Origin: Nitzschia sp. DOCU1
Lineage: Eukaryota; Bacillariophyta; Bacillariophyceae; Bacillariales; Bacillariaceae
Assembly (NCBI GenBank): GCA_951394045.1
Contig: OX595988.1
Location: forward strand, 372,001 to 436,000
Length of the DNA stretch: 64,000 nt
Direction: 5' to 3'
The translations under genes and the position numbers were made by a program. Under the pieces are notes generated by a model that was given only the letters and a program-made list of their open reading frames with translations, searched no databases and was not told the DNA's origin. This document shows positions 31,637-53,285 of this stretch, one piece after another (position 1 is the first letter of the stretch; each line of letters starts with the position of its first letter).

Positions 31637-33122
31637 TCAATCTGAGGAATGAACATTCCGCAACATGTGAGAGATCCGCGAGCAAACCTCGGTACGCTCC
31701 ATAAGAATCCAATCATCCTTGGAATCTTTCGAAAGAATCAGGAATCGCGATCCCGAATTAAGAATCTCCTCATAAATCATATTCGATATAGCGACCTTTT
31801 CCGCTTTCCTTCCCTTTCTGTAAGCGTCCCTGTTGGCCTCCAGCATTTTTCGGAGCTTTCGGTTTCCAAGCCATTTGTTGCCATGCTTTCCTCGTCCCAT
31901 CAAAATATCGTGGGGCTGCGGCAGACCCATCGCTTCAGAAATCACCGTGTCGTTCTCACCAAGAAATGACGAGACCTCGAATTCCATTGCGGTTGACATC
32001 TCATTTTCGGCGGCCAATACAGAGGCTAACATTCTCGAGTGATCCGCAGTATAAATTGTCCCATCCGTACCTACTGGAAGCGTATTTGGAAGAATGCCAA
32101 ATGCCATCAGGCTATACAAGCACTCGACGTCGCTTCCGAAATGGCTAAGCAAACGACACAGATAACTGGCTTTCATCATCGACGCCAAAAATGAAATGAG
32201 CGGTTTCATTTTCACTTCGTCGAAGCAAACGTGAAGGGCATTGAATCGAACCGGCTGGGCAGCAAACGCCTCCAAGAACAAAGGCACCCTGGAACGCTTC
32301 TGGATGTTAAGCAGGAACTCCATTCTCATGGCAACCAAATACTCCACGATTACGACTCCTTTCTTCTGAGTAAGCTCTTGATTAGAGGCCAAAGTCACCA
32401 GCCAAAAGAATATTCGGATCTGGTACAGGATAGCACAAGTTAGCCTTTATATTGCACGACGGGGCACACACGGAGGGCACACTACTTACCGCCGTCTCTG
32501 GAGGCGGCTCCCGGCCAATCTTCCTCATCATTTGCACAATGATTGCTCGCCCTCCTCGGTCACGTTCGGCACATAGCTGAAAAAATCCAGTCTCAAACAG
32601 CTGCCTGTCGTGATCTGACAGGTCTGATAATCGCAAGTCCCTTTCTAGTGTTTCGTTTCCAAAGTATTTTTGCCGGAACGCAAAGTGTAGCGCCATCCGA
32701 GAAGCAGCTTTGGCCACTTGATAGTTTTCAGATCGCAAAAACCGTAATCGCAAGCTTTGTACGTACTCGGGGCTCCTTTCCATCGCTAATTCAAACGCTC
32801 CTCGTTCTTCGACGTGGAACATTGCAGAGTCCAGTTCTTCCAGTTTCTCTGAAATTAACTCTGGCGTTTCCTCTACAGGAGAACAGGAAACTCCGTGCAC
32901 ATCATAGAACCCTTCACTTCTTTCTTGAGCAGTTAGTTGATTCAGCTTCTGGCCGGGAATGTCGTGAAGGTTTTGCTGAGCAAATAAGCGGACTTCCCCC
33001 CGCGATGAATTATTGTTGCGGGGAAGACGGGCGGATAAGTCACTTGCAGGCTTTTCTTCTTCAACGCTGCTCCCCGAAGAATCATGGACACCAGCACCGC
33101 AGTATTGGAAGCTAAATGACAT
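31637..33122 (-). CDS. CRAL-TRIO + DUF6824 fusion protein, two exons
   Basis: 471 residues: exon 1 33122-32490, exon 2 32419-31637. The 70-bp phase-0 intron has GTAAGT...CAG borders and joins P-P-E-T-A to I-R-I-F-F-W. The N-terminal part has F-A-Q-Q-N-L-H-D-I-P and E-R-S-E-G-F-Y-D (about 45-75) and a helical CRAL-TRIO_N-like L-R-L-R-F-L-R-S-E-N-Y. A CRAL-TRIO-like fold follows (R-D-R-G-G-R-A, V-R-F-N-A-L-H-V-C-F-D, F-G-S-D-V-E-C). The C-terminus (about 375-465) is a DUF6824 domain (D-I-L-M-G-R-G-K-H-G-N-K-W-L-G-N-R). DUF6824 is a stramenopile-enriched domain of unknown role, possibly DNA- or protein-binding. It is an inverted paralogue of the gene at 38073-39473, which lacks this intron. Possible role: coupling lipid sensing to regulation (inference). 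Confidence 0.8.
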
Positions 33123-37000: not shown

Positions 37001-37271
37001 GCAAGACTCTACGGATCGTCCAGGTTCGTCACTCTCGTTCAACATGTCCGATCTGGGTCTCCATTCCAATGACGCTACGCCGACTAGTGAGAACGGCGTT
37101 TCCCCCGTAAGTTTGGTGCTTCGGGATATCGTTTGGGCCCCACTCGCCATTGATTCCAAGGATCATGATCAGCATAGGCCAAGCAGCAGATCCCCTCGCC
37201 GGCTTCGTCTTGCTTCTTCACCACCAAGACCACCACGGTCGGAAGAAGACAATGGCAGGAGACAAGGATAG
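34059..37271 (+). CDS. Single-repeat Myb-like (SHLQKFR/GARP type) transcription factor
   Basis: 1,070 residues from ATG 34059; a second ATG (M-D-I-E-S-A-S) lies 30 codons on. The only clear fold is at about 368-430: W-S-M-E-H-H-R-S-F-V, I-M-D-S-M-K-N-L and T-R-E-K-T-K-S-H-L-Q-K-F-R. This is the single Myb repeat whose third helix carries S-H-L-Q-K-[YF]-R, as in plant GARP/response-regulator-type and CCA1-like proteins. Such factors bind short DNA sites as monomers or dimers. No receiver domain is present. The N-terminus is disordered, rich in Ser, Thr, Pro and Asp. Residues about 650-830 are Pro/Gly/Tyr/Met-rich, possibly an activation or condensate-forming region. Several basic clusters near the end could be nuclear localisation signals. 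A GTAAGT at 37106 suggests possible 3' splicing; the C-terminus is therefore uncertain. Confidence 0.75.
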   Translation: MTPLDDLLTIKISHPYEAEKPPTRIAATASMDIESASWSISKKRTDVSATSETEFAEPAKSSTPAIQEPQGRGEVVTSPRVKNLDEHDTTSQNDELGGQTIIGHEIDNSSADSTPAATPPNKKQQEEPTTALPIGASQGAGRGDDNNNVATFTGEPYNLSKIKTDLARNSESEPRNKDSSDFATENDVSAPLPMTGPLHIDRENPSVSDATSGPPNNTNDSGVAPPLLSRASGKSSTDTPGSSFVSGSDDGHAEETPAKTAAPQDAINDSGNCGRHGHRGVEPGVLAEGERQGETHEPSSKSLKIIALKPPSKEEEKEDVVKIKSTLLPTSGSNAAAADPSPATSVDNSNSCSEPVVPSSAASVVAIPSIDEMGWSMEHHRSFVAAVFEIGLKHCSPSVIMDSMKNLPSNITREKTKSHLQKFRKISDRSQAEFMAEYDSFLRHVEATAAAQASDKKDRDDDGKAVARSNEDSAEPKVGDINAEEAAAVLKAAIGDTAPDQLIGGKAVAYTSYSIANDCPIPESSNKISYESKPEDFPVLTDEETASSLGQSLLKVKGAFEFVTEFILKARHGIPMKLNKRIPPFLKEEDLATVVPCFPSSNNDAQNTGGTHGRTQEHQTDPVTQSAAGNMMVQAPFQGFPLPTSMVPGYPPFPLVGYDQGFPAGAPPMFPGGYVGAGSMPPSFVAGTEPFAGHNAMVAGYAMFPPPLSANPTMYAPTFLPPVQFSPYPHYPPPVPVGPEGPYPQQIHGHGPYFMPFQPLPPHAQESEGIPYQSGQVPDYHGGVAGPHSQYGYGHHPPPPPFGDPQQHEGMQHAGPSHHPSYPPPEVPSAKSKAPNVPQSRSPKRQESTSSQQKRELMRNDSEESPPHGLHLRNIFDSPSNNKEGAVSSKKASKDEAPSGHPSRMWKQQRKMPQDLNIFASASPISRRRTTSASGQKRSWSPPPPTSPAENRHGKSSKRPRGGEMTLSRPAGRASGGEHQQQDSTDRPGSSLSFNMSDLGLHSNDATPTSENGVSPVSLVLRDIVWAPLAIDSKDHDQHRPSSRSPRRLRLASSPPRPPRSEEDNGRRQG

Positions 37272-38072
37272 CGTCATCGTGCCCATGATGAATCGTTGTC
37301 AGCCGTCGATCACGTGGTCCATGATTTTGGGAAGGACGTTGCGGCACTGGCAGTGGGAGAATCACAAGAACCGAGAAGCCTTTGCGTTCATCGTTCTTTG
37401 GGTGGTGGTTCCAAGGATTGTGGACCAAAGAAGCTGGTGCAACAGCACCATTGGATCTGTCAGTGGCAAGGGAGCTCTCATCGCCTTGGTAGATATAAAA
37501 TATAGGATATGAGTACCACGTTCCCACCCTATCTCGGTAGAGCGACCAATGTTTAACAGCTCGTAGTTGCAAGCATGCGTCCGAAGTTGTGAAAATGGGT
37601 TTCGCTTCAAGGTAGATAATGCGACATGCTCGCACGTCATCGGTCGGCTCGGTGGGTATACGGAAAAGTAACAGTAATTTTGTACCAAATTGAAAATGCC
37701 GATCGGCGCGTGCCTGCCAAACCCACGATTCATTCGGGAACCATGTGACAGCTAAATCGACTGATAGGACTGAATTTGGAAACGTCATACAGCATTCGTA
37801 AGCGAATTGTCCCGCCCTTTTCCTTTCCTCTCGTTTCCCGCACAGCACTGTTGTCTGTCTGTGGCATCCCCACATCCGTGCTGTCTTCGTGCTTTGTTGC
37901 TCGTTGATTTCCCATCACGAACGTCTTCAACTCTGCGGCACATGATCCAATTGACGAACACTTCTAAACGCACATCATCCCTTTCTTAGGACTGGGCCAT
38001 TGGTTAACATCCATCATTCTCCACAGTCCATCACATCTTCTTCGTTGTCAATACACTTGCAACACTGCCATT
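37272..38072. other. Intergenic, promoter side of CRAL-TRIO/DUF6824 gene
   Basis: About 800 bp. Part may be an alternative 3' exon of the Myb-like gene, because open plus-strand frames (37150-37512, 37296-37505) run past its stop; no splice acceptor could be chosen with confidence. The last 200 bp is the leader/promoter of the gene at 38073. Confidence 0.45.
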
Positions 38073-39473
38073 ATGGGCTTTGTGTTTCAACACTGCGCAT
38101 CCTTTTGCAACCCCGCCGCCGATCAGGATAATCGCGAAAGTACGGCGGGCAGTGAAATGTCAGCCGACCTTCCTACCAGCAATCTCTCGCGAATGTTTGC
38201 CCAACAGAACCTTCATGATATCCCGAGCTACAAAATGAATGAATTGACAGCCAAGGAACGAAGTGAGGGCTTTTACGATTTACACGGCGTGTCAGTTCCA
38301 CTGGTGGAAGAAACCCCTGAACTCGTGGCGGACAAACTCGATGAGATGGATTTGGAAATGTTTCTGGTGGAAGAAAAGACTGCCTATGATTTCGCGGTAC
38401 AAACGAATTTTGATTATGTGCAAAGTCTACGGTTGCGTTTCCTTCGAGCCGAGAATTTTGATGCCGCAAGAGCCGCTCATCGAATGGCCTTGCATTTTGA
38501 TTTTAGGCTCAAAATGTTTGGTCAAACGGTTCTGGGGAGAGATATTTTATTGTCCGACTTGCCGGATTTGGATCGATCGTTATTAGAAAAGGGTTTTATG
38601 CAAGTGTGTTCTGAGCGGGATCGGGCGGGCCGAGCCGTCGAAATTCAAATGATGAGAAAGCTGGGGAAAGAGCCACCTGCCGAATCTGCGGCTCGACTCT
38701 TCTTCTTTTGGATGCAATATATTGGTAATCAGGAACTATCTCAAAAAAAGGGCGTAATCTTGATCGAGTACATGGTCGGAATCCGAATAGAGCAGCTCCT
38801 CAACACCAAACGGCGTGCCCGAAATCCATTATTTCTAAAAGTGATTGCCTCAATGCCCGTTCGACTGACTGCGTTGCACGTTTGTTTCGACGATCCACGG
38901 ATAAAGGCTCTGTTTTCGCTACTTACGTCGGTGATTGAAGGAAAACTTTTGTGTCGACTACAAAGTCATTTTGGAACGGATGTGGAGTGCATGTATAGTC
39001 TCATGGCCTACGGAATTTCACCAGTGGTTCTACCAGTACGTCCCGATGGAACAATAAGCACGGCGGAACACGATAGAAGATTACGCGAGCTCGCTGCCTT
39101 GGAAGCTGGATCCACACTGGCGGATAAGGTGTCCTCTCGGGGAATGGAAGACGAAACCCAACCAATACAGCCAACCCCTGAGGATGTGCTTCTTGGACGG
39201 GGGAAACACGGAAAGAGGTGGCCTGGAAATCTACATCTACGAAAGCTCGTGGACGATTACAATGATGCTTACAGGGCTACGGACCGGGATGGAAAGATCG
39301 AAATATCCCACAAGATCTACGAAGAAATGTCCGACGCAGGGACTCGTTTTTTGGTCCCGTCGAAAAATAGCTCGTCGGAGAGCTGGGAGAAAATGCCTCG
39401 CAGGGAAGTGTGCATTCGGATTGCACACTTGTTCCGCAACTTGCGAGCTGCAGAGAGATCAGTTACGTCGTAG
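38073..39473 (+). CDS. CRAL-TRIO + DUF6824 fusion protein, intronless
   Basis: 466 residues, ATG 38073, one exon. Same architecture as the inverted paralogue at 31637-33122: F-A-Q-Q-N-L-H-D-I-P and E-R-S-E-G-F-Y-D-L-H-G-V-S near the N-terminus, then L-R-L-R-F-L-R-A-E-N-F. A CRAL-TRIO-like core (about 190-320) has R-D-R-A-G-R-A, V-R-L-T-A-L-H-V-C-F-D and H-F-G-T-D-V-E-C-M-Y-S-L. A DUF6824 domain at about 370-462 has D-V-L-L-G-R-G-K-H-G-K-R-W-P-G-N, then I-Y-E-E-M, and ends with R-R-E-V-C-I-R-I-A-H-L-F-R-N. Its second half is duplicated as a broken copy at 48340-49064. Ligand and target are unknown; a lipid-responsive regulator is a guess from the domain pairing. Confidence 0.85.
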   Translation: MGFVFQHCASFCNPAADQDNRESTAGSEMSADLPTSNLSRMFAQQNLHDIPSYKMNELTAKERSEGFYDLHGVSVPLVEETPELVADKLDEMDLEMFLVEEKTAYDFAVQTNFDYVQSLRLRFLRAENFDAARAAHRMALHFDFRLKMFGQTVLGRDILLSDLPDLDRSLLEKGFMQVCSERDRAGRAVEIQMMRKLGKEPPAESAARLFFFWMQYIGNQELSQKKGVILIEYMVGIRIEQLLNTKRRARNPLFLKVIASMPVRLTALHVCFDDPRIKALFSLLTSVIEGKLLCRLQSHFGTDVECMYSLMAYGISPVVLPVRPDGTISTAEHDRRLRELAALEAGSTLADKVSSRGMEDETQPIQPTPEDVLLGRGKHGKRWPGNLHLRKLVDDYNDAYRATDRDGKIEISHKIYEEMSDAGTRFLVPSKNSSSESWEKMPRREVCIRIAHLFRNLRAAERSVTS

Positions 39474-39856
39474 CTGGACTTGCAATTTGAACCTATTTCT
39501 TTTTCGAGGGCATGCTGCCTTTCCGGCACCTAACACAGTACTGAACCGCCGCGAACGCAAACTAATGGCCGTGTACGTTGTTTGCAAGAAGCACGTCCAT
39601 TAATTAGTATTGCTACGATAGCCCGCATTCTTCACTGCTTTTATAGTACTAGGCAATCTATAGATGAGGCACTTCTTGGTTGTGTTGTCATACTGGTTGG
39701 TGGCATCTCCCCCGTACATAGCTGCCCTACTCGCCAAGAAGGGCAGGCCAACACATTTCCACCGTGCATAGTATGGGAAGACATGAACGGTAGTTGAAAA
39801 TTGTACATGGTTATATTACAACAAAAGCTTACAAAGTGCCCCAAAATCCTGTGATC
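39474..39856. other. Intergenic between convergent genes, left unit
   Basis: 383 bp matching 49065-49447 in the right unit. Similarity is patchy near the CRAL-TRIO stop and nearly complete over the last 50 bp (about 39805-39856). No gene here. Confidence 0.6.
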
Positions 39857-40073
39857 TTAGACCGCTGATGATGACGAGACTTTTCGTGCAAAATTCTTGA
39901 GTGATGTGCTAAATGCCTTCATCTTCTCACCACTTGATCTTCGTCGCTTAATGCGGGCGAGGGGCTGGGAGATCTTCTGTTCGACTTCTGAGGATGCCGG
40001 GCTGGTCTCGTCATCCTCTTGAACGAATTCGTCGACGCGATGCCAAAGTAGTGCCTCTTCATCTTGAACCCCT

Positions 40074-40296
40074 TGTTGTGATCCTTTCCTATCTCCGGAG
40101 GTGCAATGCAACAATCCACAGACAAAAAGAATGACTACTTTATTGAATTGCTTTTTGGACGAGGCGGTTGCTCAAACAATGCCGGGGAGAAGCAGTTATG
40201 TTCCTGCTTCGATCTGATTGGGCAAGAGGAGCAACGGCAGGTCACAATCGCACTTTCGGGTCGACTCACTCGAACAGGATTCCGGGTCGGACAACA
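40074..40296 (-). repeat. 3' LTR of the copia element
   Basis: 223 bp, matching 47125-47347 base for base as read. In transcript sense it carries a CCAATC stretch and an AATAAA polyadenylation signal (complement near 40142). It ends in the 6-bp inverted repeats TGTTGT/ACAACA. Confidence 0.95.
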
Positions 40297-40305
40297 CTCT
40301 CCCCT
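40297..40305 (-). other. Polypurine tract
   Basis: AGGGGAGAG in transcript sense, immediately upstream of the 3' LTR, the position and composition of a plus-strand primer. Confidence 0.8.
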
Positions 40306-40372
40306 GATTGTAGCATACACAAGCTAGAATCATAGTATGTACCGACATGGAAAGAAAAGAAAGGGTGGGAGT

Positions 40373-43300
40373 TTAGGGCGGGATGTGTCCCATCAGACGT
40401 TGGCAATGGCGCGAATGGAGCACCCAACCGAGTGGTTTCGTTAGATCGTCTGACGGGTTCAAAATCCCAGGAATATGGCGCATGACAATGTCTCCCGATT
40501 CCTTCCAGTCTTGAATAGCGAAAAACTGTATGAGAATGTGGCGTGAACGTTCAGTGGGTATACGAGCATTGACCATGTTGATCGCTGACTCGTTATCGCA
40601 GTATAAGGGCGTAGGATGCGACTGTGGGAATCCCAATTCCGTAAGAATAGCACGCAAGTATCGGGCATGCTTGGCGGTCGTAACAGCTGCGTAGAATTCA
40701 GCTTCAGTAGAACTTGTCGCGGTCAGGGGCTGCGTCTTGCACTTGTACGAAATGCTACCTCCAGCCATCATGAAGACGTAGCCTGTAGTGGATCGACGTT
40801 TGCGCAACTCGTTGGCGTGGGCAGCATCGAGGAAACCAGTGAGCCGAATTCCGGATTCGTAAGAAGGGAAGGCAGGCAAGGAAGGATCCACAGAAGCAGC
40901 TGCAAGAGGACAAGGTGGCAGGGTCGGATCGACGACAGAACGGTAATAGTGGAGTCCCCAGTCACGAGTGCTGCGCAGATACTTAGCAACTTTCTTGAGC
41001 ATGGCAAAATGATACGCCGAGGGAGCAGTAGCGAATTTGCTCAGGGTGATGACTGCATAACCGATGTCAGGGCGGCAAGTAACGTAAGCATACAACAGTT
41101 CCCCAAGAAGTGTTCGATAACCGAACCCAAATGACGCCACAAGCTTGTGATAGTCCTCGGAACCTTCTTCTGATCCTTTGGAAGCATACATGGTCGAAAT
41201 GCTATCCGGTGGAAGAGGCGACGTAGGCCGAGAGCTGGAGTGATCGCTCGGCGAAGCTTGGTCCCAACCGTGTGAGCGGAGAACGCGATCGATGTAGCTT
41301 CCGCAACTGAGAACTATTCGGTCAGAATACTGTTTGACATCAACACCATTGAAGTCGTGGAGAAGCCCCAAATAGCTGAAGGGGACGGACGACTCGGATG
41401 GCAGCTTCAACAAATCACCAATACGCTTGTAGATAGCCTGAGCAATGGCTTCATCGGGGACAGCAAGAGCAAAATCGTCCACCTGGCGAAGAAGGAATAT
41501 AGGAGTGCCTTCATAGTCTCCTCGATAGATCGACTTATCATGGGTGGTGGAGCGAAAATTGAGATCTGGGGACCGAAGAATCTTTGAAATATGTTGCTCC
41601 CAGAGGCGTCCCGATTCAGGATGGCCTTGTAATGCATGGAGCACCGGCAGAACCTTGGATCGATCGACCGGTCGCCCGAACTTCCATTTGTACCAGTCGG
41701 CATACGCGTCGTCAATTTCAACGTACGTGGGTCGATCCGGTGGTGGCGAATGAGCGTATGCGTCTTTGGCATCGCCGCCGAAAACTTTGTAATTCATCTC
41801 AGCCGACAGTGCAAAGAATAAGCGCTGCACAGGCTGCTCAACGCATGACGAGTATGTTTGCACAAAACGATGCAACGAAGGGGCAGCGCGCGGAGAACCA
41901 TCGCAACAGTTTCGAGCACGGCGAGTACCATCACGTTTGATGTGATATTGCCAGTGTTGGCGGAGCACGATAGAATCCTTGACTCGATCGACGGGGAGCC
42001 CATACATACCGAGATCGTGGAACTGGTCGAGCTGCTTACGCTCACCGGCTTCCCAAAGGGACCATGTATCCAATTTCTTCAGCTTCTTTCGAGTGAAATG
42101 ACCGATGGCTTGCTCGTCATTTGTAGTAGCACTCGAGCGAATAGCTGAGATAGCAGCAGCAGCCTGCTCAGTCGGAAGTGGGGACTCTGAAAAGTCGTCC
42201 TCCGGATACCGAATTGACGCGATAGAGCGAACATCCTGAACAGATAAAGTGTGAACATGTACCCCATCTGCTGGAAGATCCGGGGCGAATATATCCAGTT
42301 CCTTCATGGCATTTCGAAGCTGTTTTGCTGCCAAGTATCGCTCAGGAGCAAACTCGATAGCGAACGAATTCAACTTTGATTGACGGGCGGACCGCAGCGC
42401 TTCGAGAACTTCGTCCTTCGTAAAGACAGGAGTACCGTTTATGCGAATAATATACGCACCACGGATTTTGTTCCTGGTTGCCTTGTGAGACGAGAAGAGC
42501 CTTGAGGCACTGCTATCCTTTCGGATGTCAGACACAAAAGCTCGGTTGCTTAATTGATCGTTCTCCACAGAAAGGCCAAAGTTGTTGCACTGACACGCAA
42601 CCCGCATGCGCCGTGGGAGGGTCGCAAAGAAAGGGCTGGACCCAACATCGAATTCCCGGACCAAAACTTCTTGCATTTCCATTGGCATCTCTTCGCCAAG
42701 TTGTGTGCGTTGTAGATGAACGACGTTCGGCGGTGTCTCGTTCAACGGTAGATCGTTCATGCCCTCGTCGAATCGGGCGTGTTTAGCAATCTTAACATGA
42801 GACGTCTCAGGGTCATACCAAAGAATGTTCGTAGTTGTGTTGGGAATAAAACCAAGGAATATCCCACGTCTCGAAACAACACGAAACTTGGCAGGTCTTC
42901 GCCCTGGCGGTCGGACCCATACACGACAACCAAACGTGCGGAAGTCGGCAAAGTTATCCACCTTTCCCTGAGCGATCTGTAGTGGACTTGCATCCTGATC
43001 GCGGGACGGTAACGAGTTATCGATCCTGAGCCAGTGATGGAATGCATATGGCCAAAACCGGATGTCTAGGTTGGCACCAGTAAGCATGGCCCGAATCGCA
43101 TTGGCAACCGTACGATGGGCTCGTTCGACTGGTCCATTTTGATTGGACGCGTCGGCACCAGTAGGTCGGACATCATATCCGAAATCCTTGAACAATTTTA
43201 CCACTTCGGGGTTTGCATAAAGTTCCCCACCTTGGTCAAGCATTACGTACTTTCCGTCGCATTGTGGTGAATGCTTGCGCAAGAAATCACGTAGCCAATT

Positions 43301-44875
43301 GATTGGGGACGCCTTAGAAACACGAGTGTCGCCGTGTTTCATACGCGAAAAATGGTCCGTAACGAGGATCCAACACGTCTCCCCATTAAACCCAACAAAG
43401 TCCTTGGCACGATTCCCATCTTTGGAACGCTGACCTGCAAATGAAAAATCGATAGACAAGCCTTGGTAGGGTTGAGTTGCGACGCGAGTAGTACTGTCAC
43501 CAGCGGGCTCCTTGGTTTGTTTTGCTCGGATGCACGTGGGACAAGCGTCCAGGATCGGGTCCATGTGCTTAAATTCCGGTACTCCCTCCACATGCTTGTG
43601 AGCATTGTAGAGGTAGTAGTCGCTCGGATGTCCAAGTCTCTGGTGCCATAGTAGGCGCTCAGCTTCCTTGCGAATTGCATGCACAGGAGTATTTCGCTGA
43701 ATAAATTCGTGAAATGGCAGACCATGGTACATTCGAGGCAGGTTCTTGAACTCTTCTCGGAGCTTCGCGTATTCCTTCTCTTGATGGGCGTAAACAGCGT
43801 ATAATGTTGCACGTTCACATGCCTCTGTAAATTCAGCATCTTCAACCTTGATTGCTTGAATCGCTTCATCCGAACATGGCTCGAACAGTACTCCAGAGTA
43901 ACATTTTCCCGAACGTAGTACTCCATGAATCGTCACATCCTGAGATCGACGGAACTTGTGCGATGCAGTCCAGGTACACGTGCCAGCATCGTAGTACTTC
44001 GTAAGCTTTTCTCCTTCGATGTCACGCCTCTTGAGACCAGCAGCGCGAATTAGGTCCAGTTCATTTATGACCGTGGTGCGTAGCGCTGGAGTATAAAAGG
44101 TTAGCACAGGTAGATAACCAGACACAGCGGTAACGCACGGAACATGCAGGAAACCAAATCCTTCAGGGCTTGCATCGGATCCATGAGTTGCCGGCATAAG
44201 CTTGAGTGGGCTCGGGAATTTCTTGGTGAAACGCCGATATCCAAAGAGGAGACGCTTTTGGTCCGTACAAGTTGCATGGGCGCCCGTGTCGATTTGTGCA
44301 CGCATGCCATCAACATCTTGAGAGTCCGGAATAGGATCTGAGGTGACCGGTGAATCGCATGATAGGGCATGTACGGCGACATTTATCACGTTCGTCTCAG
44401 GATCATCGATATCGCTGTCGGAGTCGGTCGCATCACCATCATCTGGCCCATACGGGATTAGTGCAGGTGCATCATCGTTATTGGGGTTTGCATCGAGAAC
44501 GTTGGGATCAGGAGGCTTGCGTGGGACTGGCATCACAACGTCAATTCCTTGGTCTCTCCCCTCATTCGGATCGGGAGACGTAGAAGGGACAGTCGCAGGA
44601 TCTCGCCGTGCTCTCCCCCCTTTGGAGGCTGGGCGTTTCTGTGCAATTTTCTTGCGGCCAAATCTGGAGCTCGCTCTCCCCTCATCCTGTGTTTCTGAGC
44701 CCCGAAACAAAGGATGAATATGACGAGACAGATTTGACAGATTTGACGCTTGGACTGTACCATCGTCCGCAAGGTCGGAGATAGAAGCGACGGACTTGCT
44801 GCTATCCGGCAGCTCCGACAAAGTCCCGCTCGTAGAATACTTGGATTTGTTGGAAGGAGGGCGGCGCGAAACCAA
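40373..44875 (-). CDS. Copia Pol polyprotein with an internal PDZ-like segment
   Basis: About 1,500 residues, open from just inside the gag end; no ATG opens it (first start-like codon TTG), so it is probably made by frameshifting. In order: an Asp/Pro-rich linker; protease with I-D-T-G-A-H (about 195); the integrase zinc region (W-H-Q-R-L-G-H-P ... C-P-T-C); the integrase core with Asp in L-S-I-D-F, Asp in M-L-D-Q-G-G and Glu in G-P-V-E-R-A-H-R (about 470-640). A PDZ-like segment (about 758-845: F-G-L-S-V-E, I-R-G-A-Y-I-I-R-I-N-G-T-P-V) follows. Then come reverse transcriptase (about 940-1180) with the catalytic box Q-V-D-D-F and RNase H (about 1330-1470: F-L-D-A-A-H, S-S-T-E-A-E, C-D-N-E-S-A). 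No disabling change seen. Confidence 0.92.
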   Translation of the reverse strand: MVSRRPPSNKSKYSTSGTLSELPDSSKSVASISDLADDGTVQASNLSNLSRHIHPLFRGSETQDEGRASSRFGRKKIAQKRPASKGGRARRDPATVPSTSPDPNEGRDQGIDVVMPVPRKPPDPNVLDANPNNDDAPALIPYGPDDGDATDSDSDIDDPETNVINVAVHALSCDSPVTSDPIPDSQDVDGMRAQIDTGAHATCTDQKRLLFGYRRFTKKFPSPLKLMPATHGSDASPEGFGFLHVPCVTAVSGYLPVLTFYTPALRTTVINELDLIRAAGLKRRDIEGEKLTKYYDAGTCTWTASHKFRRSQDVTIHGVLRSGKCYSGVLFEPCSDEAIQAIKVEDAEFTEACERATLYAVYAHQEKEYAKLREEFKNLPRMYHGLPFHEFIQRNTPVHAIRKEAERLLWHQRLGHPSDYYLYNAHKHVEGVPEFKHMDPILDACPTCIRAKQTKEPAGDSTTRVATQPYQGLSIDFSFAGQRSKDGNRAKDFVGFNGETCWILVTDHFSRMKHGDTRVSKASPINWLRDFLRKHSPQCDGKYVMLDQGGELYANPEVVKLFKDFGYDVRPTGADASNQNGPVERAHRTVANAIRAMLTGANLDIRFWPYAFHHWLRIDNSLPSRDQDASPLQIAQGKVDNFADFRTFGCRVWVRPPGRRPAKFRVVSRRGIFLGFIPNTTTNILWYDPETSHVKIAKHARFDEGMNDLPLNETPPNVVHLQRTQLGEEMPMEMQEVLVREFDVGSSPFFATLPRRMRVACQCNNFGLSVENDQLSNRAFVSDIRKDSSASRLFSSHKATRNKIRGAYIIRINGTPVFTKDEVLEALRSARQSKLNSFAIEFAPERYLAAKQLRNAMKELDIFAPDLPADGVHVHTLSVQDVRSIASIRYPEDDFSESPLPTEQAAAAISAIRSSATTNDEQAIGHFTRKKLKKLDTWSLWEAGERKQLDQFHDLGMYGLPVDRVKDSIVLRQHWQYHIKRDGTRRARNCCDGSPRAAPSLHRFVQTYSSCVEQPVQRLFFALSAEMNYKVFGGDAKDAYAHSPPPDRPTYVEIDDAYADWYKWKFGRPVDRSKVLPVLHALQGHPESGRLWEQHISKILRSPDLNFRSTTHDKSIYRGDYEGTPIFLLRQVDDFALAVPDEAIAQAIYKRIGDLLKLPSESSVPFSYLGLLHDFNGVDVKQYSDRIVLSCGSYIDRVLRSHGWDQASPSDHSSSRPTSPLPPDSISTMYASKGSEEGSEDYHKLVASFGFGYRTLLGELLYAYVTCRPDIGYAVITLSKFATAPSAYHFAMLKKVAKYLRSTRDWGLHYYRSVVDPTLPPCPLAAASVDPSLPAFPSYESGIRLTGFLDAAHANELRKRRSTTGYVFMMAGGSISYKCKTQPLTATSSTEAEFYAAVTTAKHARYLRAILTELGFPQSHPTPLYCDNESAINMVNARIPTERSRHILIQFFAIQDWKESGDIVMRHIPGILNPSDDLTKPLGWVLHSRHCQRLMGHIPP

Positions 44876-44877
44876 GT

Positions 44878-46986
44878 TTATCCGCGGCCGCGCTGAAAAT
44901 CCTCACCATCAGTGTCCGTGTCGCTACCACCTTCATAATGATCGTCTTTGGCATCAATGAAGTTCAACGATTTGACAGGTGGGGTATTGGTACCGCGGGG
45001 AGGCGAGCTTCCGTTCTTCCCGGAAAGGAGGGCAGCCTTAGCAGTAGAATCTCGGCGGAGCTGCTGGCAGTACCGAACATAATGCCCACGTAGGAAGTCG
45101 GCGTTGCCAAGAACAGGGCACTTATCAAAGCGGTGTTTCCCATCACACACAATACAAGTGGTGTCTCGGGCAATATCAGGTTCCATTTGGATCCGATGCA
45201 CCGAGGCACAATAAACATGGTAGAGAGCGCGAGACCCTTTCTTCTTCGGGACCTTGATCGACATTAGCGCAGCACTGATAGGATCATCATCATCGGTGGC
45301 ATCATCATCGTCATCAGAGCCTTCTTTGGTGGAATCAGCATCGGCATCATCATCCGAGACGGCGGCGACTGCATTGACGATCGCACTAAAAGGCTTGCGA
45401 TACGGTTTGCGGGAACCGTAATCAGTCTTCCCAGTCCTCCCCGATATATCTTTCTTCGAATAGCGGGAGGAGGTAACTTCCTTCCATTCGGGGCTATCAG
45501 CTTCAAGTAGGAACTTAGACAATGTTTCAATAAGCTGAGTACCACGATACTTCTTGATGGCAATCGATGGGGTGCGGCGTTCCTCTCGAGTGACCTGGTT
45601 GAGGTAGACATTGTGCTTGGTGTTCCGAATAAAAATGTCAAGCTCGCTCAAGTCGTCAAGAGTCAAGGTGATATCAGCAATCCAGGCTCTCAATTGAAGA
45701 TAATCGTTGAATATCCGATAGTACGCAGTCATCGAGAGTTCCTTCTGTTTCGGGTACTCACGAATCAACGTTGAAGGATGAGCATAGAACGCTGGATGAC
45801 TTTTGAACAGCACTGATTTGAGAGCACTGTATCCGTCTCCAGGGCACGATTGAACGATTTCGATGAGACGGCTTCCCTTCGGAAACATCTCTTTCTTGCA
45901 GAGCACTCGGTAGATGACATTCGTCATCTTTGCAATCTGGATTTCCATCCGCTTCGGAAGATCGTCGTTCGGTCCATCCCCAACGGTGAAACCCTCAGGC
46001 CCTCCATGATCCGGAAGGTAGCACCACAATGGATGTGCGTAGTAACCATAGTCCAAACATGCCTGGCTGAAGTTCTGGTACCATTGGCGTATCCCAGCAT
46101 GCGTATCATCTTCGCAATAGACCGTAGCCTTCAAGAACTCCTTCTCATTCGGAACTTGGATCTGAAAAAAGGTACCATCCGGAAGGATCAGCTTGTCTAC
46201 ACCTTCAAGATGATAGCGAAACCCGGTAGAGTACGGCATGCGGACCATAGATCCAGTGATCAACCCTTTGGTCTTGTACTTGTTCTCGTAGCGAGTGCAA
46301 ACATCCGGGGGCAGTGCACCAGAGTTGAAGTTGAACAGAATTCCAGCAGTCGAAGCAGAGGTGGGGACGCTAGGCGTCACAACGGTGGCAGAGGTAGTAA
46401 CGGTAGGCTGTGGGTACGCGCTAGCGAACGCACTAGCAAGTTCAGCAGCAGTCGGGGGCGTCGGAATGGCTCCAACAACCGCAGCAGCAATTTCAGCAGC
46501 AGTCATTGGTGGGGGCGGAGCTGGGACTCTAATCGAAGTCAGCGAAAACTGGGACCAGTCAGTGAAGTCAATCGGTCCGTTTGTCGAGTCAAAGTAGATC
46601 TGAGACGTTCCCACTCGGATCTCAACCGAATCCTTTCCGTTTGTGATGGCGATTTCCAGGGCTCTTTGCAGACTATCTCGAGACAGCCGTCGTTGGCTTC
46701 CGTTCACTTCCACGTAGAGAGGCAAAGAGTTGATGATCCTGGTGATGTCGTTGATATCCGAAGTCTGAGTTGCCATCGGAGCAATGACTTCTCGCGCAAT
46801 GATTTGTCTGAGAAGGTCGATGACTTCTCGTTCCGTCTTCAGGTCATCCATGGTGACTGGATCAACGAACAAACGACTGGGTTCCGGAATCGCATCCTGA
46901 TAGATCAAGTTCATGAATCGGTGAGCGTCGGGATCACGATTCTGGGCGAGGAACTTGACAACGTAGTCGGTAACCGTAGTAAACAT
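44878..46986 (-). CDS. Copia Gag protein
   Basis: 702 residues, ATG complementary to 46984-46986, 138 bases inside the 5' LTR. It forms the virus-like particle that packages element RNA. A helical N-terminal part is followed by an Ala/Pro/Thr-rich spacer (about 155-215) and a Gag core (about 220-500). A highly acidic tract (about 545-590) precedes a zinc-knuckle-like C-I-V-C-D-G-K-H-R-F-D-K-C (about 640). The knuckle spacing is C-x2-C-x3-H-x4-C, one residue shorter than the classical C-x2-C-x4-H-x4-C. It ends in TAA three bases before the first start-like codon of pol, which is in the -1 frame relative to gag. Confidence 0.88.
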   Translation of the reverse strand: MFTTVTDYVVKFLAQNRDPDAHRFMNLIYQDAIPEPSRLFVDPVTMDDLKTEREVIDLLRQIIAREVIAPMATQTSDINDITRIINSLPLYVEVNGSQRRLSRDSLQRALEIAITNGKDSVEIRVGTSQIYFDSTNGPIDFTDWSQFSLTSIRVPAPPPPMTAAEIAAAVVGAIPTPPTAAELASAFASAYPQPTVTTSATVVTPSVPTSASTAGILFNFNSGALPPDVCTRYENKYKTKGLITGSMVRMPYSTGFRYHLEGVDKLILPDGTFFQIQVPNEKEFLKATVYCEDDTHAGIRQWYQNFSQACLDYGYYAHPLWCYLPDHGGPEGFTVGDGPNDDLPKRMEIQIAKMTNVIYRVLCKKEMFPKGSRLIEIVQSCPGDGYSALKSVLFKSHPAFYAHPSTLIREYPKQKELSMTAYYRIFNDYLQLRAWIADITLTLDDLSELDIFIRNTKHNVYLNQVTREERRTPSIAIKKYRGTQLIETLSKFLLEADSPEWKEVTSSRYSKKDISGRTGKTDYGSRKPYRKPFSAIVNAVAAVSDDDADADSTKEGSDDDDDATDDDDPISAALMSIKVPKKKGSRALYHVYCASVHRIQMEPDIARDTTCIVCDGKHRFDKCPVLGNADFLRGHYVRYCQQLRRDSTAKAALLSGKNGSSPPRGTNTPPVKSLNFIDAKDDHYEGGSDTDTDGEDFQRGRG

Positions 46987-47109
46987 GATGTTTGAGTGAG
47001 AAGCTTCTGTTTCGCGGGGGGATTATCCGTTTCCTTCGTACAATCCTCTTCCGATTTCAGCCACCCAACCGCGATAGCAGTCAGATTCCGATAACGCAAG
47101 CGAAGTGTA

Positions 47110-47124
47110 TTTGGGCTCATAACC
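47110..47124 (-). other. Primer binding site (initiator tRNA-Met anticodon arm)
   Basis: Directly next to the 5' LTR, transcript sense GGTTATGAGCCCAAA. It is complementary to the GGGCTCATAACC anticodon arm of initiator-type tRNA-Met, not to a tRNA 3' CCA end. Drosophila copia likewise primes from an internal cut of initiator tRNA-Met. Confidence 0.75.
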
Positions 47125-47347
47125 TGTTGTGATCCTTTCCTATCTCCGGAGGTGCAATGCAACAATCCACAGACAAAAAGAATGACTACTTTATTGAATT
47201 GCTTTTTGGACGAGGCGGTTGCTCAAACAATGCCGGGGAGAAGCAGTTATGTTCCTGCTTCGATCTGATTGGGCAAGAGGAGCAACGGCAGGTCACAATC
47301 GCACTTTCGGGTCGACTCACTCGAACAGGATTCCGGGTCGGACAACA
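47125..47347 (-). repeat. 5' LTR of the copia element
   Basis: 223 bp, identical as read to the LTR at 40074-40296. It holds the promoter for the element; transcription runs toward lower coordinates. Confidence 0.95.
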
Positions 47348-47765
47348 CCCCTCGAACATGTGCTTGAATGCGCATGTCGGCACAATGCTGTTGATACATC
47401 TCGGCACAAGCAAAGCCGTCGACGATACCCTCGTCGAATAGTTCCCTTTGGCCATCAATTACCAGCCAAACAGCCTTCTTAATACGCGCTCTTCGTTCCC
47501 TGCACTCCTTGCCTCCCCAGTTTTCAAGCCCCCGCATGCAGTAGAAGTCTTCTTTGTCTTGCTCTTCTGAGCATTCTTGTTCACCATCATCCGTTCGAAG
47601 AGCTTTGACAGTCTTATCGCAGTGTGATCGGAATCGAGCAAAGTCGGAAAAACTCCACCATATCAGGGGTCGTTCAAACTCGTCGACCTTGTCGAATTCT
47701 TGAACTTTGTTCAGAGATTCATCACAGAAAGTAACAGCAGATGTGTAAGAAGACGACATGGACAT

Positions 47766-48339
47766 TTTGAGGATGTTGTTCTTGTGGTTGCGTTGTAAAA
47801 GGAATTGAAGGCTTGGAGGCTTGTTTTTATGCTCCTTGGGTTAGAATCGATGAAATTATGAGCAGACGGAAAGATGAACGCGAACCAACATCATCGAAAA
47901 GGTGTGTGCTAAAAAAAGATTTTTGAGATGTCGACGCAGGATTCTCGGGATTGGTGGCTTGCACGATAAAATGCACAAGATATCCAGTTCCGCCTCCAGC
48001 CATTCCGTCCCCAGGATTCCGGACGAGGCTTATCATATGGAGAGAGGCCTTGCAACGAATTTGTTCGGTATTATTGCCCAAGTCGAATCTTCAAGCTTCA
48101 CTTTGTTCTAGCGTCCGAATCATTTTTTGTTTCGAGAAAATTCATGGTTTCATCAGTGTTGCTCTACATAATTTCTACGTACATTTCGTTACTCAGGAGG
48201 CCTCGAACTCCAGTGTGAACAACGAGATAATAAGCCTCAACAGAATTCCATCCGCACTGCAAATGCAGGTGAGATTTCCATCGATGACTTTGATATTTCT
48301 CACGACACGTCGTCAATCACAATCAGCAAAAGCTGCTCG
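47766..48339. other. Promoter of the split gene and duplication junction
   Basis: 574 bp. Its first part resembles 50081-50220 (upstream of the intact paralogue). The block near 48230-48300 matches one near 50570-50640. The head-to-tail junction of the two duplication units lies at about 48325-48340. No gene recognised. Confidence 0.55.
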
Positions 48340-49064
48340 TGATACATAGAATTGAAATGTTGTTTTTAGTCATCAGAATCCCAATAGAGCGTGGTGGTCC
48401 TCAATCGCAAACGGAGGGCCCGGAATCCAGCATTGCTAAAGTGATTGCCCCCATGCCCGTCCGACTGATGACTGCCTTGCACGTTTGTTCCGATGATCCT
48501 CGGATAAAGGCTCTGTTTTCACTCTTTTAAAGTCGGTGATTGAAGGAAAACGTTTTTGTCGACTATAGTCATTTTGGAACGGATGTGGAGTCCATGAGCA
48601 GAACCATGGCCTAGCCAATTTCACCTGTGGTTTTGCCACTACGTCCAGATGGAACCATCAGCACCACGGAACACGATAGAAGATTACGCGAGCTCGCTGC
48701 CTTGGACGCTGGATCTACGCTGAGGGATCAGATTTCGTCTCGTGGAGGGATGACGAAACCCGGCCAACGCCACAAGATGTGCTTCTCGGACGGGGAAAAA
48801 CACGGAAAGAGGTGGCCTGGAAACCAACATCTACGAAGCTTGTTGACGATTACAATGATGCCTGCAGGGCTACGGACAGAGATGGAAAAATTGAAATATC
48901 CCACAAGATCTCCGAAGAAATGTCCGACGAAGGAGCTCGATTTTTGGTCCATCAAAAATAACGCGTCGCAGACCTGGGAGAGAATGCCTCGCAGGGAGGT
49001 GTGCATTAGGATTGCACGCATGTTCCGCAACTTGCGAGCTACTGAGAGATCAGTTAGTACGTAG
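48340..49064 (+). pseudogene. 5'-truncated CRAL-TRIO/DUF6824 pseudogene
   Basis: Corresponds to the last 240 or so codons of the gene at 38073-39473. It begins abruptly in the region encoding M-V-G-I-R-I-E-Q, with no promoter or N-terminus. It is broken by a stop after K-A-L-F-S-L (48528-48530), an in-frame TAG in the L-M-A-Y equivalent (near 48611) and frameshifts inside the DUF6824 region. There D-V-L-L-G-R-G-K reads in one frame and H-G-K-R-W-P-G-N in another. The final R-R-E-V-C-I-R-I-A-R-M-F-R-N is intact in frame. It arose with the tandem duplication, whose left breakpoint lay inside the parent gene. Confidence 0.9.
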
Positions 49065-49447
49065 CTGGACTTGAAATTTCGACCTTTCGCGTTTTCGCGG
49101 GCTTGTTGTTGCTGTCGTTCCGGCACCTAAAATAGAACTGAAGCGGCCCGAACTCTTTCTCAGATGGCCGTTGATGTTGTTTGCAATGAGCACGACCATC
49201 AATTGGTAGGGCTACTACTACCGGCAGAATGGAAATGGGGCACTTCTTGGTTGTACTATGCATATCTGACGTGTTGGTGGCATTTCCAGTGCTACTACTT
49301 GTTGCCCTACTCGCAAAAGCGGGCAGGGCAACACATTATAACTAGTAAAGTATGGGAAGACAGGCAAGCTAGATCAAAATAATTGTACATGGTTATATTA
49401 CAACAAAAGCTTACAAAGTGCCCTAAAATCCTATCCTCTGTGATCTT
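49065..49447. other. Intergenic between convergent genes, right unit
   Basis: 383 bp, the counterpart of 39474-39856. No gene. The part next to the small gene's stop is nearly identical to the left unit. Confidence 0.6.
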
Positions 49448-50080
49448 TTAGGCCGCTGATGATGACGAGACTTTTCGTGCAAAATTCTTGAGTGATGTGC
49501 TAAATGCCTTCATCTTCTCACCACTTGATCTTCGTCGCTTAATGCGGGCGAGGGGCTGGGAGATCTTCTGTTCGACTTCTGAGGATGCCGGGCTGGTCTC
49601 GTCATCCTCTTGCACGAATTCGTCGACGCGATGCCAAAGTAGTGCCTCTTCATCTTGAACCCCTCGAACATGTGCTTGAATGCGCATGTCGGCACAATGC
49701 TGTTGATACATCTCGGCACAAGCAAAGCCGTCGACGATACCCTCGTCGAATAGTTCCCTTTGGCCATCAATTACCAGCCAAACAGCCTTCTTAATACGCG
49801 CCCTTCGTTCCCTGCACTCCTTGCCTCCCCAGTTTTCAAGCCCCCGCATGCAGTAAAAGTTTTCTTTGTCTTGTTCTTCTGCGCATTCTTGTTCTCCGTC
49901 ATCGCTTCGAAGAGCTCTAACAGTCGTGTTACAGAGTGATCGGAATCGAGCAAAGTCGGAAAAACTCCACCATATTAGGGGTCGCTCAAATTCTTCGACC
50001 TTGTCGAACTCGTGAACTTTGTTCAAAGATCCATCACAGAACGTGACAGTAGCAGTGGAAGAAGACGACGACATGGACAT
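49448..50080 (-). CDS. Small diatom-type protein of unknown function
   Basis: 210 residues. The frame is open further upstream, but the first ATG is the complement of 50078-50080 (M-S-M-S-S-S-S-S); the disrupted paralogue starts at the same point. No named domain is recognised. Visible pattern: V-T-F-C-D-G-S-L-N-K-V near the N-terminus; R-P-L-I-W-W-S-F-S-D-F; C-M-R-G-L-E-N-W; then a helical basic stretch R-E-R-R-A-R-I-K-K-A-V-W-L-V-I-D-G-Q, C-A-E-M-Y, and a Ser/Lys-rich basic tail (K-R-R-R-S-S). I have the impression that this W-Y/W-W ... R-G-L-E ... Q pattern is a widespread diatom family with no assigned role. This is the only working copy left in the tandem duplication. Confidence 0.8.
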   Translation of the reverse strand: MSMSSSSSTATVTFCDGSLNKVHEFDKVEEFERPLIWWSFSDFARFRSLCNTTVRALRSDDGEQECAEEQDKENFYCMRGLENWGGKECRERRARIKKAVWLVIDGQRELFDEGIVDGFACAEMYQQHCADMRIQAHVRGVQDEEALLWHRVDEFVQEDDETSPASSEVEQKISQPLARIKRRRSSGEKMKAFSTSLKNFARKVSSSSAA

Positions 50081-51349
50081 TTCGAAGATGTTGTTCTTGT
50101 GGCTGCGTCGTGAAAAGCTTTGGATGGTTGGTGCTTTGCTTTTTATGCTTCTTGCGTTACCAAGAAACTCATGCAGAAAATATGAGCAGAGAAGGAAAGT
50201 ATGATGGAACAACAGCAAAGAATATGGGCAAAAGATATTTTACGTGGCTAGTTGATTTTCGTCATCGCACGATCAGGCAAGGTGACCCGCAAGTTCCGCG
50301 CTAATAGAGAGAAGTATGGTAGATTCTAGGACATTTTGTGCCAAGACTTCGGAGACGTAGCCATATTGCATCAAAACACTTAAGAGAATTTTCGCAATGT
50401 TATTGCCCCAGCCAAATCGTCGAAGCTTCATTTTTGTTCGGTGGAGGGCTCGACTTCTCATTTTTTCAAAGGAAAGTGATGCTCTACTCATGTCCTACGT
50501 AAGTTTTGTTACACTTCGGTAACAAACGCTCATGGAATGGAGAACTGTGGAATACCTACTGATAAGCCTATAGAGAAATGCTGCTTAATGCAAATGCAGG
50601 TGAGATTTAATCGATGCCTTTGATATTTCTCAATATAATCATCTTCAATGACACAACCAGTGCCCTCCTCCGGCCGGTAGTCGGAATTCTAGCGCTACTT
50701 CTACACAATCACAAGAGTTTCTTGTGCGAAGACGAAGCTATATGCCACGCCATTCTTTTATTAGTGCCCTTTAGTCGTCGGTCTTCCGCGGGTCGACCTC
50801 TTATGGCATAATAGTTTTGCTCGTCGAAACCGGAAACGAGCTTCACTGCAACGCGCAACTACCTCAGATAACTTCGGAATCTATGTTCGCACCAAGGGCT
50901 TATCTGTTCCACGGATGAGGATTCTCACTTCCAACCCCCCATTCTCATCAATCAATTTCGCCGTTCGCTCCATTTACGTTTCCATGCAATAGCATCGAAT
51001 CATCATAAATACCTGCCACTTGCTATTAGTTTTCGTCGATCTTTGAATTCGCAATAGAGAGGCAGCTATGAAACTGCCTGTTGCCTCGAGTCGAGTCTAC
51101 CGTAGTATCTGGTGCTAATTGTTTTGTTGCTGGTAGTCTGGCTAGAAGGCGAAGCGTGGTAATGAAGTGTGATTTTCCAATTTGGCGCATCTTGTTGTTG
51201 TAGTACTAGGTAACCTCCGGTTACGATAGTTCTCAGCGGTATGCTACTATTCTTATATTCGTAACCTAGTAGTAGGAAAAGGGAACAGTCAGTACAGTAG
51301 CTATCGTAGTAGCAGCAGCAAGATGTTACTTTGCGGCAGTGTCGTCCGG

Positions 51350-51380
<31 letters not shown>

Positions 51381-51944
51381 CTTCTTCTTCTTGGGAGTCG
51401 CTAGGTACAGTGAAAACCACCGCTGTCGCTGCATCGCGCAACCCTCATTTCATCAGCACAGCAGCAGAACGAGGCCATCTCGTTTCGATTGCGGCGACAA
51501 CTTCTGGTGGCTGGCGGTGCTGGTGTCGTGCTGGTGGGTGGTGGTCCACTATTCTTCTTGCTGCTAGGATAACAAGAACATGTTCCTGCTTCTTGTCGTC
51601 GCTCTCAGCATGGTACGATACTTCTTCCTCCTTCTTTTCTTGTTCTTTGGACAACCCCATCACCTTTCTTGCATTGCTAGGATCTCGTTGTTGCTGGTTT
51701 TCGGAATGCCCGTCGTCACGTCGTTGTTTCGCGCCAAGAAGAGCCGCGCGCCGGTCATCCCAAGCACCGGACCGTTAATCCCACGTCATCGTACGTTAGT
51801 CGGGATCTCGGAAAAAAGACACGAATCAAAAAATGACGCGTTGTCCATCTCATCTCGTCGTCGACAATTTTCACTAGCAGCAACCACAATGGGAAACCGC
51901 TTCCATTTCGCCACCAGAGTGATCACAAATAGTAATTTGCAATC
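50081..51944. other. Intergenic, no gene recognised
   Basis: About 1.9 kb: the rest of the right duplication unit (to about 50665), then unique sequence and a CTT microsatellite. A hydrophobic open frame (51580-51948) overlaps the next gene's start by ATGA in another frame. It could be part of an upstream exon but no splice pair was convincing. Confidence 0.5.
51351..51392. repeat. (CTT)14 microsatellite
   Basis: Fourteen uninterrupted CTT units upstream of the membrane-protein gene. A simple sequence repeat, probably variable. Confidence 0.95.
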
Positions 51945-53285
51945 ATGATGAAGTCTACGGGAAATTACAGCAGTGGTGACGATCTGGATCTGGGGTTTTC
52001 TGCCGCTGTTACCATCGAAGGTGATCGAGAAAAGGAGTTGGCGTTGCAACAGCAACAATACGATGCCGCAGCGGACGTGTTGAAAGCCATTGGAGGGTTG
52101 TTGCAAGGAGCAGATTCTACCTTACAAAACCTGGAAGATAATGTGGACATTTTGCCGTCCGCGATTCTGCGTCGATGCCAAGAGCTGGCCGACGGAATCG
52201 GTGCTTTGGCAGGACGCCTGGAAGAACATTCACCCGAAGAGCAGAGGGCGCTGGCACAAGCATGTGCTCAAGACTTCCAGCAACTGGATGCGGGCCTGGC
52301 ACGGGCTAGACAAGAGCACGAACTGGCGCTTCAAGCAAATATGGGCAGGGAGGACGACCAGGAAACCGAGACGTTGATTCCAACGCGAAGCAGTACGTCT
52401 TCGCGTCTGTCAGTAAGTCCCCCGACAGAAGACGACTTTTTGCGGGCGATTCAGGGTGCGGCAACGCTGTTGCGTGATGTAGAAGCTGCCTTTCGAGACA
52501 TTTCCGAAACGGATGCAGAAGATATTGCAGATGCAGCATTGACCCTGGCGAGGCTCTTCTTGATGTCGCTCCAGAATGTTCATGAAACGTTGACGCCAGA
52601 CGACTTTTTCATCGAGCAACAAAACGGGGCTTTAAGAAACTCCGCCGAGAGCGGGGTGATTATCGAAGAACTTGACGAGAACGGAGAAGAAGTGCAGGAT
52701 GAAAATGAGACTTCCAATAAAACTGAGCAAAATCAGAGGTCGTCGGAAAAGCGCAAGAAGCAGCCACGTCGAGTTCGGGTACTGTGGCCTCGATTAGGAC
52801 CGGAAGTCGCGCGAGTGCTGGGCTGGGCGAAGGAGGCCGCAGCGGAGCAGCCCCTCTTGGCGGTCGCCCTGGGGTTGACGCTGTGGCCAGCGGCCATCAT
52901 TACGACAGTTATTGGCGGCTCTGTGGTTTTGGCTGACAATGTCGTTCAAGATATCTACCAGCATTTTCAGGACGGCCCGATTGTATCGAATCTGGAGCAG
53001 GGAGCCGCACAAGTACTACAAGCTGGAAAGTTGGGACTCGTTCTGACGTCTGTCGTTGGGAAACAAACGTGGCGTGTCGTTCAGCGTCAGGTGAAAAGGC
53101 ATGGCGGTGTGGAAAAGATCGCAAATTCTGTCAAAGACGCTGCCGTAGAGCGCTTCACTCATCCAGTGGAGACGGTGAGCATGGCTTGGAACGGACTGGT
53201 ATGGGGTGTCTTCGCTGTCACGGATACCGTGCAGCAGATTCTTCAGCAACGAGAAGAACTCTTGACAGTGCAAGATCTACAATGA
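51945..53285 (+). CDS. Putative membrane protein, unknown function
   Basis: 446 residues from ATG 51945. I recognise no family. Residues 1-220 are mainly amphipathic helix, rich in Gln, Glu, Ala and Leu (L-Q-G-A-D-S-T-L-Q-N-L, R-C-Q-E-L-A-D-G-I-G-A-L-A), with a Ser-rich break near 145. An acidic then basic linker (about 235-275, K-R-K-K-Q-P-R-R) follows. Next come two adjacent hydrophobic segments (about 300-335: A-V-A-L-G-L-T-L-W-P-A-A-I-I-T-T and V-I-G-G-S-V-V-L). The C-terminal 110 residues are again helical. Possibly a membrane-shaping or coiled-coil organelle protein, but that is guesswork. A signal-bearing upstream exon cannot be excluded. Confidence 0.65.
   Translation: MMKSTGNYSSGDDLDLGFSAAVTIEGDREKELALQQQQYDAAADVLKAIGGLLQGADSTLQNLEDNVDILPSAILRRCQELADGIGALAGRLEEHSPEEQRALAQACAQDFQQLDAGLARARQEHELALQANMGREDDQETETLIPTRSSTSSRLSVSPPTEDDFLRAIQGAATLLRDVEAAFRDISETDAEDIADAALTLARLFLMSLQNVHETLTPDDFFIEQQNGALRNSAESGVIIEELDENGEEVQDENETSNKTEQNQRSSEKRKKQPRRVRVLWPRLGPEVARVLGWAKEAAAEQPLLAVALGLTLWPAAIITTVIGGSVVLADNVVQDIYQHFQDGPIVSNLEQGAAQVLQAGKLGLVLTSVVGKQTWRVVQRQVKRHGGVEKIANSVKDAAVERFTHPVETVSMAWNGLVWGVFAVTDTVQQILQQREELLTVQDLQ

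What the first reader, a model, noticed from the sequence alone, without database searches (positions are those of the whole stretch)
38755..50665. Tandem duplication with reciprocal decay of two convergent genes
Seen: a head-to-tail repeat of about 2.3 kb whose left end falls inside the CRAL-TRIO/DUF6824 gene. The left unit keeps that gene intact while its small neighbour is split by copia. The right unit has a 5'-truncated, frameshifted CRAL-TRIO/DUF6824 copy but an intact small gene. After removing the element, the units are about the same length (2.3 kb). So the locus still has exactly one working copy of each gene, but in different units.
Basis: partly seen in the sequence, partly recalled or inferred. 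Interest (0 to 1): 0.75.

Follow-up and report, generated by a model that had tools for sequence, protein, structure and literature searches.

The report
Old tandem duplication, recently hit retrotransposon
A 2.3-kb stretch was duplicated side by side long ago; one gene was copied without its front half and decayed, while the other was copied whole, partly re-homogenised between the copies, and only recently broken in one copy by a jumping element, so the tidy split is most likely a coincidence.

Summary
Unit A (38776-48326, interrupted by a copia element at 40074-47347) and unit B (48373-50660) are collinear head-to-tail copies of 2272 and 2288 bases. "Reciprocal decay" is not the best account. 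Unit B starts inside the CRAL-TRIO-like/DUF6824 gene (about codon 235), so that copy lacks its start and was probably dead at birth. It has 8 frame-breaking indels and took 24 of the 27 amino-acid changes that homologue P0006 polarises. The small gene was copied whole and stayed under constraint (N-part dN 0.08, dS 0.53). Gene conversion then made its 3' two-thirds nearly identical (dS 0.02). Last, a copia element with identical LTRs (0 of 223) and a CCCCT target duplication landed inside the converted tract. So: old partial duplication, decay, conversion, recent insertion. "One working copy of each" holds only for the closest copies in this assembly: a homologue of the first gene matches this genome at 108 places (exon by exon), including a paralogue 5 kb upstream. 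The split small gene keeps a 172-aa frame, and the insertion may be heterozygous. This is ordinary genome evolution, well ordered by its internal clocks.

The parts
38073..39473 (+). intact CRAL-TRIO-like/DUF6824 gene, one open frame of 466 aa
   Evidence: ORF; DUF6824 E 3e-15, CRAL_TRIO_N sub-threshold; 75% identical to P0006 over its residues 1-441
38776..48326 (+). duplication unit A (2272 bases without the element and one target copy)
   Evidence: alignment to unit B
40074..47347 (-). copia-type LTR retrotransposon inserted in the left small gene; LTRs 40074-40296 and 47125-47347 identical; domain order GAG-pre-integrase, SH3-like, RVT_2 (that this order is typical of copia is recalled)
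40069..40073 (+). target-site duplication CCCCT, first copy
47348..47352 (+). target-site duplication CCCCT, second copy
47353..47765 (-). left small gene, 5' part (413 nt from the ATG); the frame runs on through the target copy into the LTR to 47247 (172 aa in all)
39857..40073 (-). left small gene, 3' part (217 nt, ending in its stop codon)
48327..48372 (.). junction between the units: 46 bases without a convincing partner; 48290-48420 is found once in the genome
48373..50660 (+). duplication unit B (2288 bases)
48373..49064 (+). truncated CRAL-TRIO-like/DUF6824 pseudogene copy; starts at the equivalent of codon 235, 8 frame-breaking indels, in-register stop at codon 313
   Evidence: found with 3 internal stops
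49448..50080 (-). right small gene, intact (210 aa, function unknown)
49376..49855 (.). gene-conversion tract in unit B (counterpart in A: 39797-40073 plus 47353-47543)
   Evidence: maximal-scoring segment and 0 of 2000 permutations; dS contrast

Best explanation
A partial tandem duplication of about 2.3 kb, whose left breakpoint lay inside the CRAL-TRIO-like/DUF6824 gene, created a second complete copy of the small convergent gene and a headless copy of the first gene. The headless copy decayed. Both small-gene copies stayed under purifying selection. Much later a gene-conversion event made the 3' two-thirds of the small gene nearly identical in both units. Most recently a copia retrotransposon inserted into the converted part of the left copy. 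Shown: the anatomy, the divergence contrasts, the polarised changes and the target duplication. Inferred: non-function from birth, a single conversion before the insertion, and loss of function of the split copy.
For: One collinear match of 2359 columns. Divergence by segment: headless gene 576 of 674 identical (85.5%), intergenic 219 of 296 (74.0%), tract 398 of 400, first 75 codons of the small gene dS 0.53 and dN 0.08, codons from 76 on dS 0.023 and dN 0.003. Synonymous contrast between the two parts, Fisher p 1.1e-7 on rounded counts. Longest run with at most 2 mismatches is 403 columns; 0 of 2000 permutations reach it, the largest being 90. Where the two CRAL-TRIO-like/DUF6824 copies differ in amino acid, P0006 agrees with the intact copy at 24 positions, with the truncated one at 3, with neither at 14; the other seven homologues used give 20-26 against 0-5. 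For the small gene a mean dN/dS of about 0.15 in the unconverted part is too low for either copy to have been long neutral. LTRs 0 of 223 different (95% upper bound 0.013) with an intact 5-bp target duplication. High identity continues on both sides of the element, so conversion most simply came first.
Against: dN/dS of the truncated pair is 0.37 (pN/pS bootstrap 0.29-0.65). A copy neutral since birth facing a well-constrained partner would give about 0.55 (my assumption: partner at about 0.1). That is inside the interval but above the point estimate, so an initial functional period of a longer copy is not excluded. Synonymous divergence of the small-gene N part (0.53) exceeds that of the truncated gene (0.31), not significantly (p 0.14). 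The 5' flank of the small gene is far more diverged (61%) than the intergenic part (74%), which one duplication at one rate does not explain well. The permutation test spreads mismatches evenly and so ignores such rate differences; the synonymous contrast is the better test. The closest small-gene homologue, P0001, sides with the right copy 7 to 2, a hint, not significant by my arithmetic, that the left copy had changed more.
Confidence: 0.85

Rival explanations
1. Reciprocal (complementary) loss: a complete duplication of both genes, after which one copy of each gene degenerated in different units, perhaps under selection to keep one of each.
For: The end state fits, and dN/dS 0.37 for the truncated pair leaves room for an initial constrained period.
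Against: Unit B similarity begins inside the gene, and 37300-38783 shows no similarity above shuffles to 47766-48372 (67 of 300 reach the score) or to 50600-52000 (47 of 300). The two losses have very different ages and the second is a single insertion.
Confidence: 0.1
2. High identity in the small gene reflects only strong purifying selection, with no conversion.
For: The C-terminal tail is conserved in the five homologues (alignment).
Against: Synonymous sites are nearly identical too: 2 differences in 88.7 sites, against 17.5 in 46.2 in the first 75 codons of the same gene. The maximal-scoring segment starts at 39797, about 60 bases outside the frame, where identity is still 92% (61 of 66 for 39799-39864).
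Confidence: 0.04
3. The insertion is heterozygous or strain-specific and both small genes still work on the other haplotype; the finding is then a presence/absence polymorphism. This is compatible with the main explanation.
For: LTRs are identical. In Phaeodactylum tricornutum many transposable-element insertions examined were on one haplotype only (passages of PMC2806351).
Against: No second haplotype of the locus was found in the assembly: own-genome searches return this locus, plus a 74-base distant hit on C5. A collapsed assembly would look the same.
Confidence: 0.4

Closest known systems
Partial tandem gene duplication giving a headless duplicated pseudogene (general process, recalled)
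   Same: Breakpoint inside a gene, one complete and one truncated copy, asymmetric decay
   Different: Nothing essential; a complete convergent neighbour was carried along
Ectopic gene conversion between tandem paralogues (general process, recalled)
   Same: Sharp tract of about 0.5 kb with near-zero synonymous divergence amid about 0.3-0.5
   Different: Direction and number of events not resolved for want of outgroup DNA
Ty1/copia LTR retrotransposons of diatoms (CoDi elements; PMC2806351, passages seen)
   Same: LTR pair, polyprotein ORF, target duplication; insertions polymorphic between accessions are reported there
   Different: This one lies inside a gene; the insertion sites that those authors cloned from other accessions were not inside genes. 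Membership of a CoDi clade was not tested

Membership tests
Tandem segmental duplication | Collinear direct copies, adjacent, same orientation | tested here: met
Tandem segmental duplication | Second unit bounded by the same breakpoints | tested here: inconclusive
   ends 38776/48373 and 48326/50660 by blastn, but 46 junction bases have no convincing partner
Gene conversion between paralogues | Tract with significant excess identity that includes synonymous and non-coding sites | tested here: met
Gene conversion between paralogues | Copies group by genome, not by unit, in a tree of the tract | not tested
   no orthologous pair of units from another species was at hand
Reciprocal loss after complete duplication | Both genes complete in both units at birth | tested here: inconclusive
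   no trace of the 5' half or upstream region in unit B, but a later deletion would look alike; the dN/dS interval includes truncation at birth
Copia LTR retrotransposon | LTR pair TG...CA, 5-bp target duplication | tested here: met
Copia LTR retrotransposon | RVT_2 downstream of integrase-region domains in one polyprotein | tested here: met
   gag_pre-integrs 401-453 (28.2 bits, just under its cut-off of 28.4), SH3_retrovirus 637-705, RVT_2 963-1204; the integrase core itself not matched at E 0.001
CRAL-TRIO protein | CRAL-TRIO domain above curated cut-off | tested here: not met
   only CRAL_TRIO_N at 16 bits, cut-off 23

The most novel reading that the evidence does not exclude
The split left copy is still useful: it makes a 172-aa protein of about 139 native residues plus about 33 encoded by the LTR, without the conserved basic C-terminal segment, so that the recent insertion has turned a homogenised duplicate into a new variant while the right copy keeps the old role.
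Probability: 0.05. Interest if true: 0.4.

Novelty: new member of a known kind. Interest (0 to 1): 0.18.

Why it matters
It is a compact example in which partial duplication, decay, conversion and transposition can be ordered by their own internal clocks. It also warns that a neat "one good copy each, in different units" pattern can arise without any complementary selection. It opens no new question by itself.

Tried and rejected
A repeat at the duplication breakpoint: 48290-48420 is found once in the genome and the junction bases match neither outer flank convincingly (11 of 300 shuffles reach the score against 50655-50900; 276 of 300 against 37000-38100). Naming the organism: not possible from the calls. 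A diatom is likely from DUF6824 and the protein make-up (recalled), and a paper search for DUF6824 returned 0 papers. A source copy of the element: two other places with LTRs were found, C1 (about 90% LTR identity) and C17 (92% over 170 bases), neither close to this copy; the search gives lower bounds. Direction of conversion: needs outgroup DNA, and only outgroup proteins were at hand.

Papers: searches on tandem duplication with gene conversion in diatoms, DUF6824, CoDi/copia elements of diatoms, partial duplication and dead-on-arrival pseudogenes and mitotic recombination in diatoms. Listings only were seen, except for passages of PMC2806351. None of the listed titles and abstract starts describes this locus; one search listed 8 of 69 papers, 10 of 13 and 6 of 8.

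In one search one base was lost at the joined site because I resumed at 47354; this was corrected to 47353. Segment numbers come from then on; the unit ends and the overall 78.5% come. Of the 9 homologues, P0014 (31% identity) was left out of the polarisation; the eight used largely repeat one another and are not independent tests.

Full report
Observation. The window is G000:C4:372001-436000 of a 52-Mb assembly of 63 contigs without a name. Leaving out the element, the two units align in one collinear block of 2359 columns at 78.5% identity, from 38776/48373 to 48326/50660 (coordinates checked). Unit lengths are 2272 and 2288 bases. Between the units lie 46 bases (48327-48372) with no convincing partner. 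Searches of the assembly with three stretches of the locus return this locus only, apart from a 74-base distant hit on C5.

The element. LTRs 40074-40296 and 47125-47347 are identical over 223 bases, begin TG and end CA, and are flanked by CCCCT on both sides; unit B has the uninterrupted site at the same place. Two ORFs on the minus strand, 702 and 1500 aa, the second with GAG-pre-integrase, SH3-like and RVT_2 matches, mark it as copia-like. It lies in the same orientation as the small gene. Two relatives with LTRs were found in the assembly: on C1 (about 90% LTR identity, its own LTRs differing at 2 of 225) and on C17 (92% over 170 bases, its own LTRs identical within a 232-base match). Counts from this search are lower bounds.

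The truncated gene. Unit B begins at the equivalent of codon 235 of the 466-codon gene. Ten indels separate the copies in the coding part, eight of them not multiples of three, and there is a stop in register at codon 313. Over 217 comparable codons dS is 0.31 and dN 0.115. Differences by codon position are 26 of 226, 25 of 223 and 47 of 222. Where the copies differ in amino acid, homologue P0006 agrees with the intact copy at 24 positions, with the truncated copy at 3 and with neither at 14. The other seven homologues used give 20-26 against 0-5 (8 of the 9 homologues, P0014 left out as most distant). So nearly all polarisable changes fell on the truncated copy. The dN/dS of 0.37 (pN/pS interval 0.29-0.65) does not distinguish neutrality from birth from a constrained start.

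The small gene. The right copy has 210 aa; the left copy has 209 codons open across the empty site. The insertion falls after 413 nt, within codon 138. dS is 0.53 and dN 0.08 in the first 75 codons, so both copies were under constraint. From codon 76 on dS is 0.023 and dN 0.003. The near-identical stretch is 398 of 400 bases in 39865-47543; by maximal-scoring segment it runs from 39797 to 47543 (B 49376-49855). Its length with up to two mismatches exceeds all 2000 permutations, a test that ignores rate differences along the alignment. With the synonymous contrast (p 1.1e-7) this is the mark of gene conversion. The element sits inside this tract and the identity continues on both sides, so conversion most simply preceded insertion. 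The five homologues polarise the amino-acid differences of the two copies A/B as 2/7, 4/3, 5/4, 1/4 and 3/4: no clear decay of either, with the closest homologue leaning to the right copy.

Is there one working copy of each? In this assembly the small gene's next relatives are 20 places at no more than 35% identity to the query P0001 (23 matches, of which 3 belong to the locus). The first gene has many relatives: P0006 matches 108 places from 95 scored of 326 candidates. These are counted exon by exon, include this locus, and are a lower bound. A close paralogue lies inside the window at 31640-32999 on the minus strand (60% and 47% identity to P0006 in two blocks). The left small gene keeps its ATG and 172 codons, ending in the LTR, but without the C-terminal segment that the five homologues share. 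In P. tricornutum many element insertions were on one haplotype only (PMC2806351, passages), so here too the other haplotype may have the empty site; the assembly cannot tell.

Conclusion. The pattern is real, but it is best read as a chain of ordinary events of very different age rather than reciprocal decay.

Noticed in passing
window 31640-32999 (-): A second CRAL-TRIO-like/DUF6824-type gene in two open blocks separated by 70 bases that contain a GT...AG stretch; the gene at 38073-39473 is open through that point. Homologue P0007 carries extra residues there, and P0008 starts near there, as if an intron were common in the family.
   Followed up: partly
whole assembly: P0006 (CRAL-TRIO-like plus DUF6824) matches at least 108 places, counted exon by exon, many of them in clusters on C3, C4, C5, C6 and C8: a large, locally duplicated gene family; a paper search for DUF6824 found none.
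   Followed up: no
L024 (G000:C13:897000-906999) and C13:911102: A perfect head-to-tail repeat of period 5362 (4638 of 4638 bases identical in the part held); one search finds three matches at that spacing, each in a 297-aa frame distantly related to the small gene (25%). Very recent amplification or an assembly artefact.
   Followed up: partly
G000:C29:3149-4501 and G000:C53:3399-4751: Two contigs give the same two family matches with the same scores and spacing, which suggests duplicate or haplotype contigs in the assembly.
   Followed up: no
window 47766-48325 against 50081-50660: The 5' flank of the small gene is much more diverged between units (61%) than the intergenic part on the other side (74%) and the truncated gene (85.5%); one rate and one duplication do not explain this, and older conversion on one side is possible.
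   Followed up: partly
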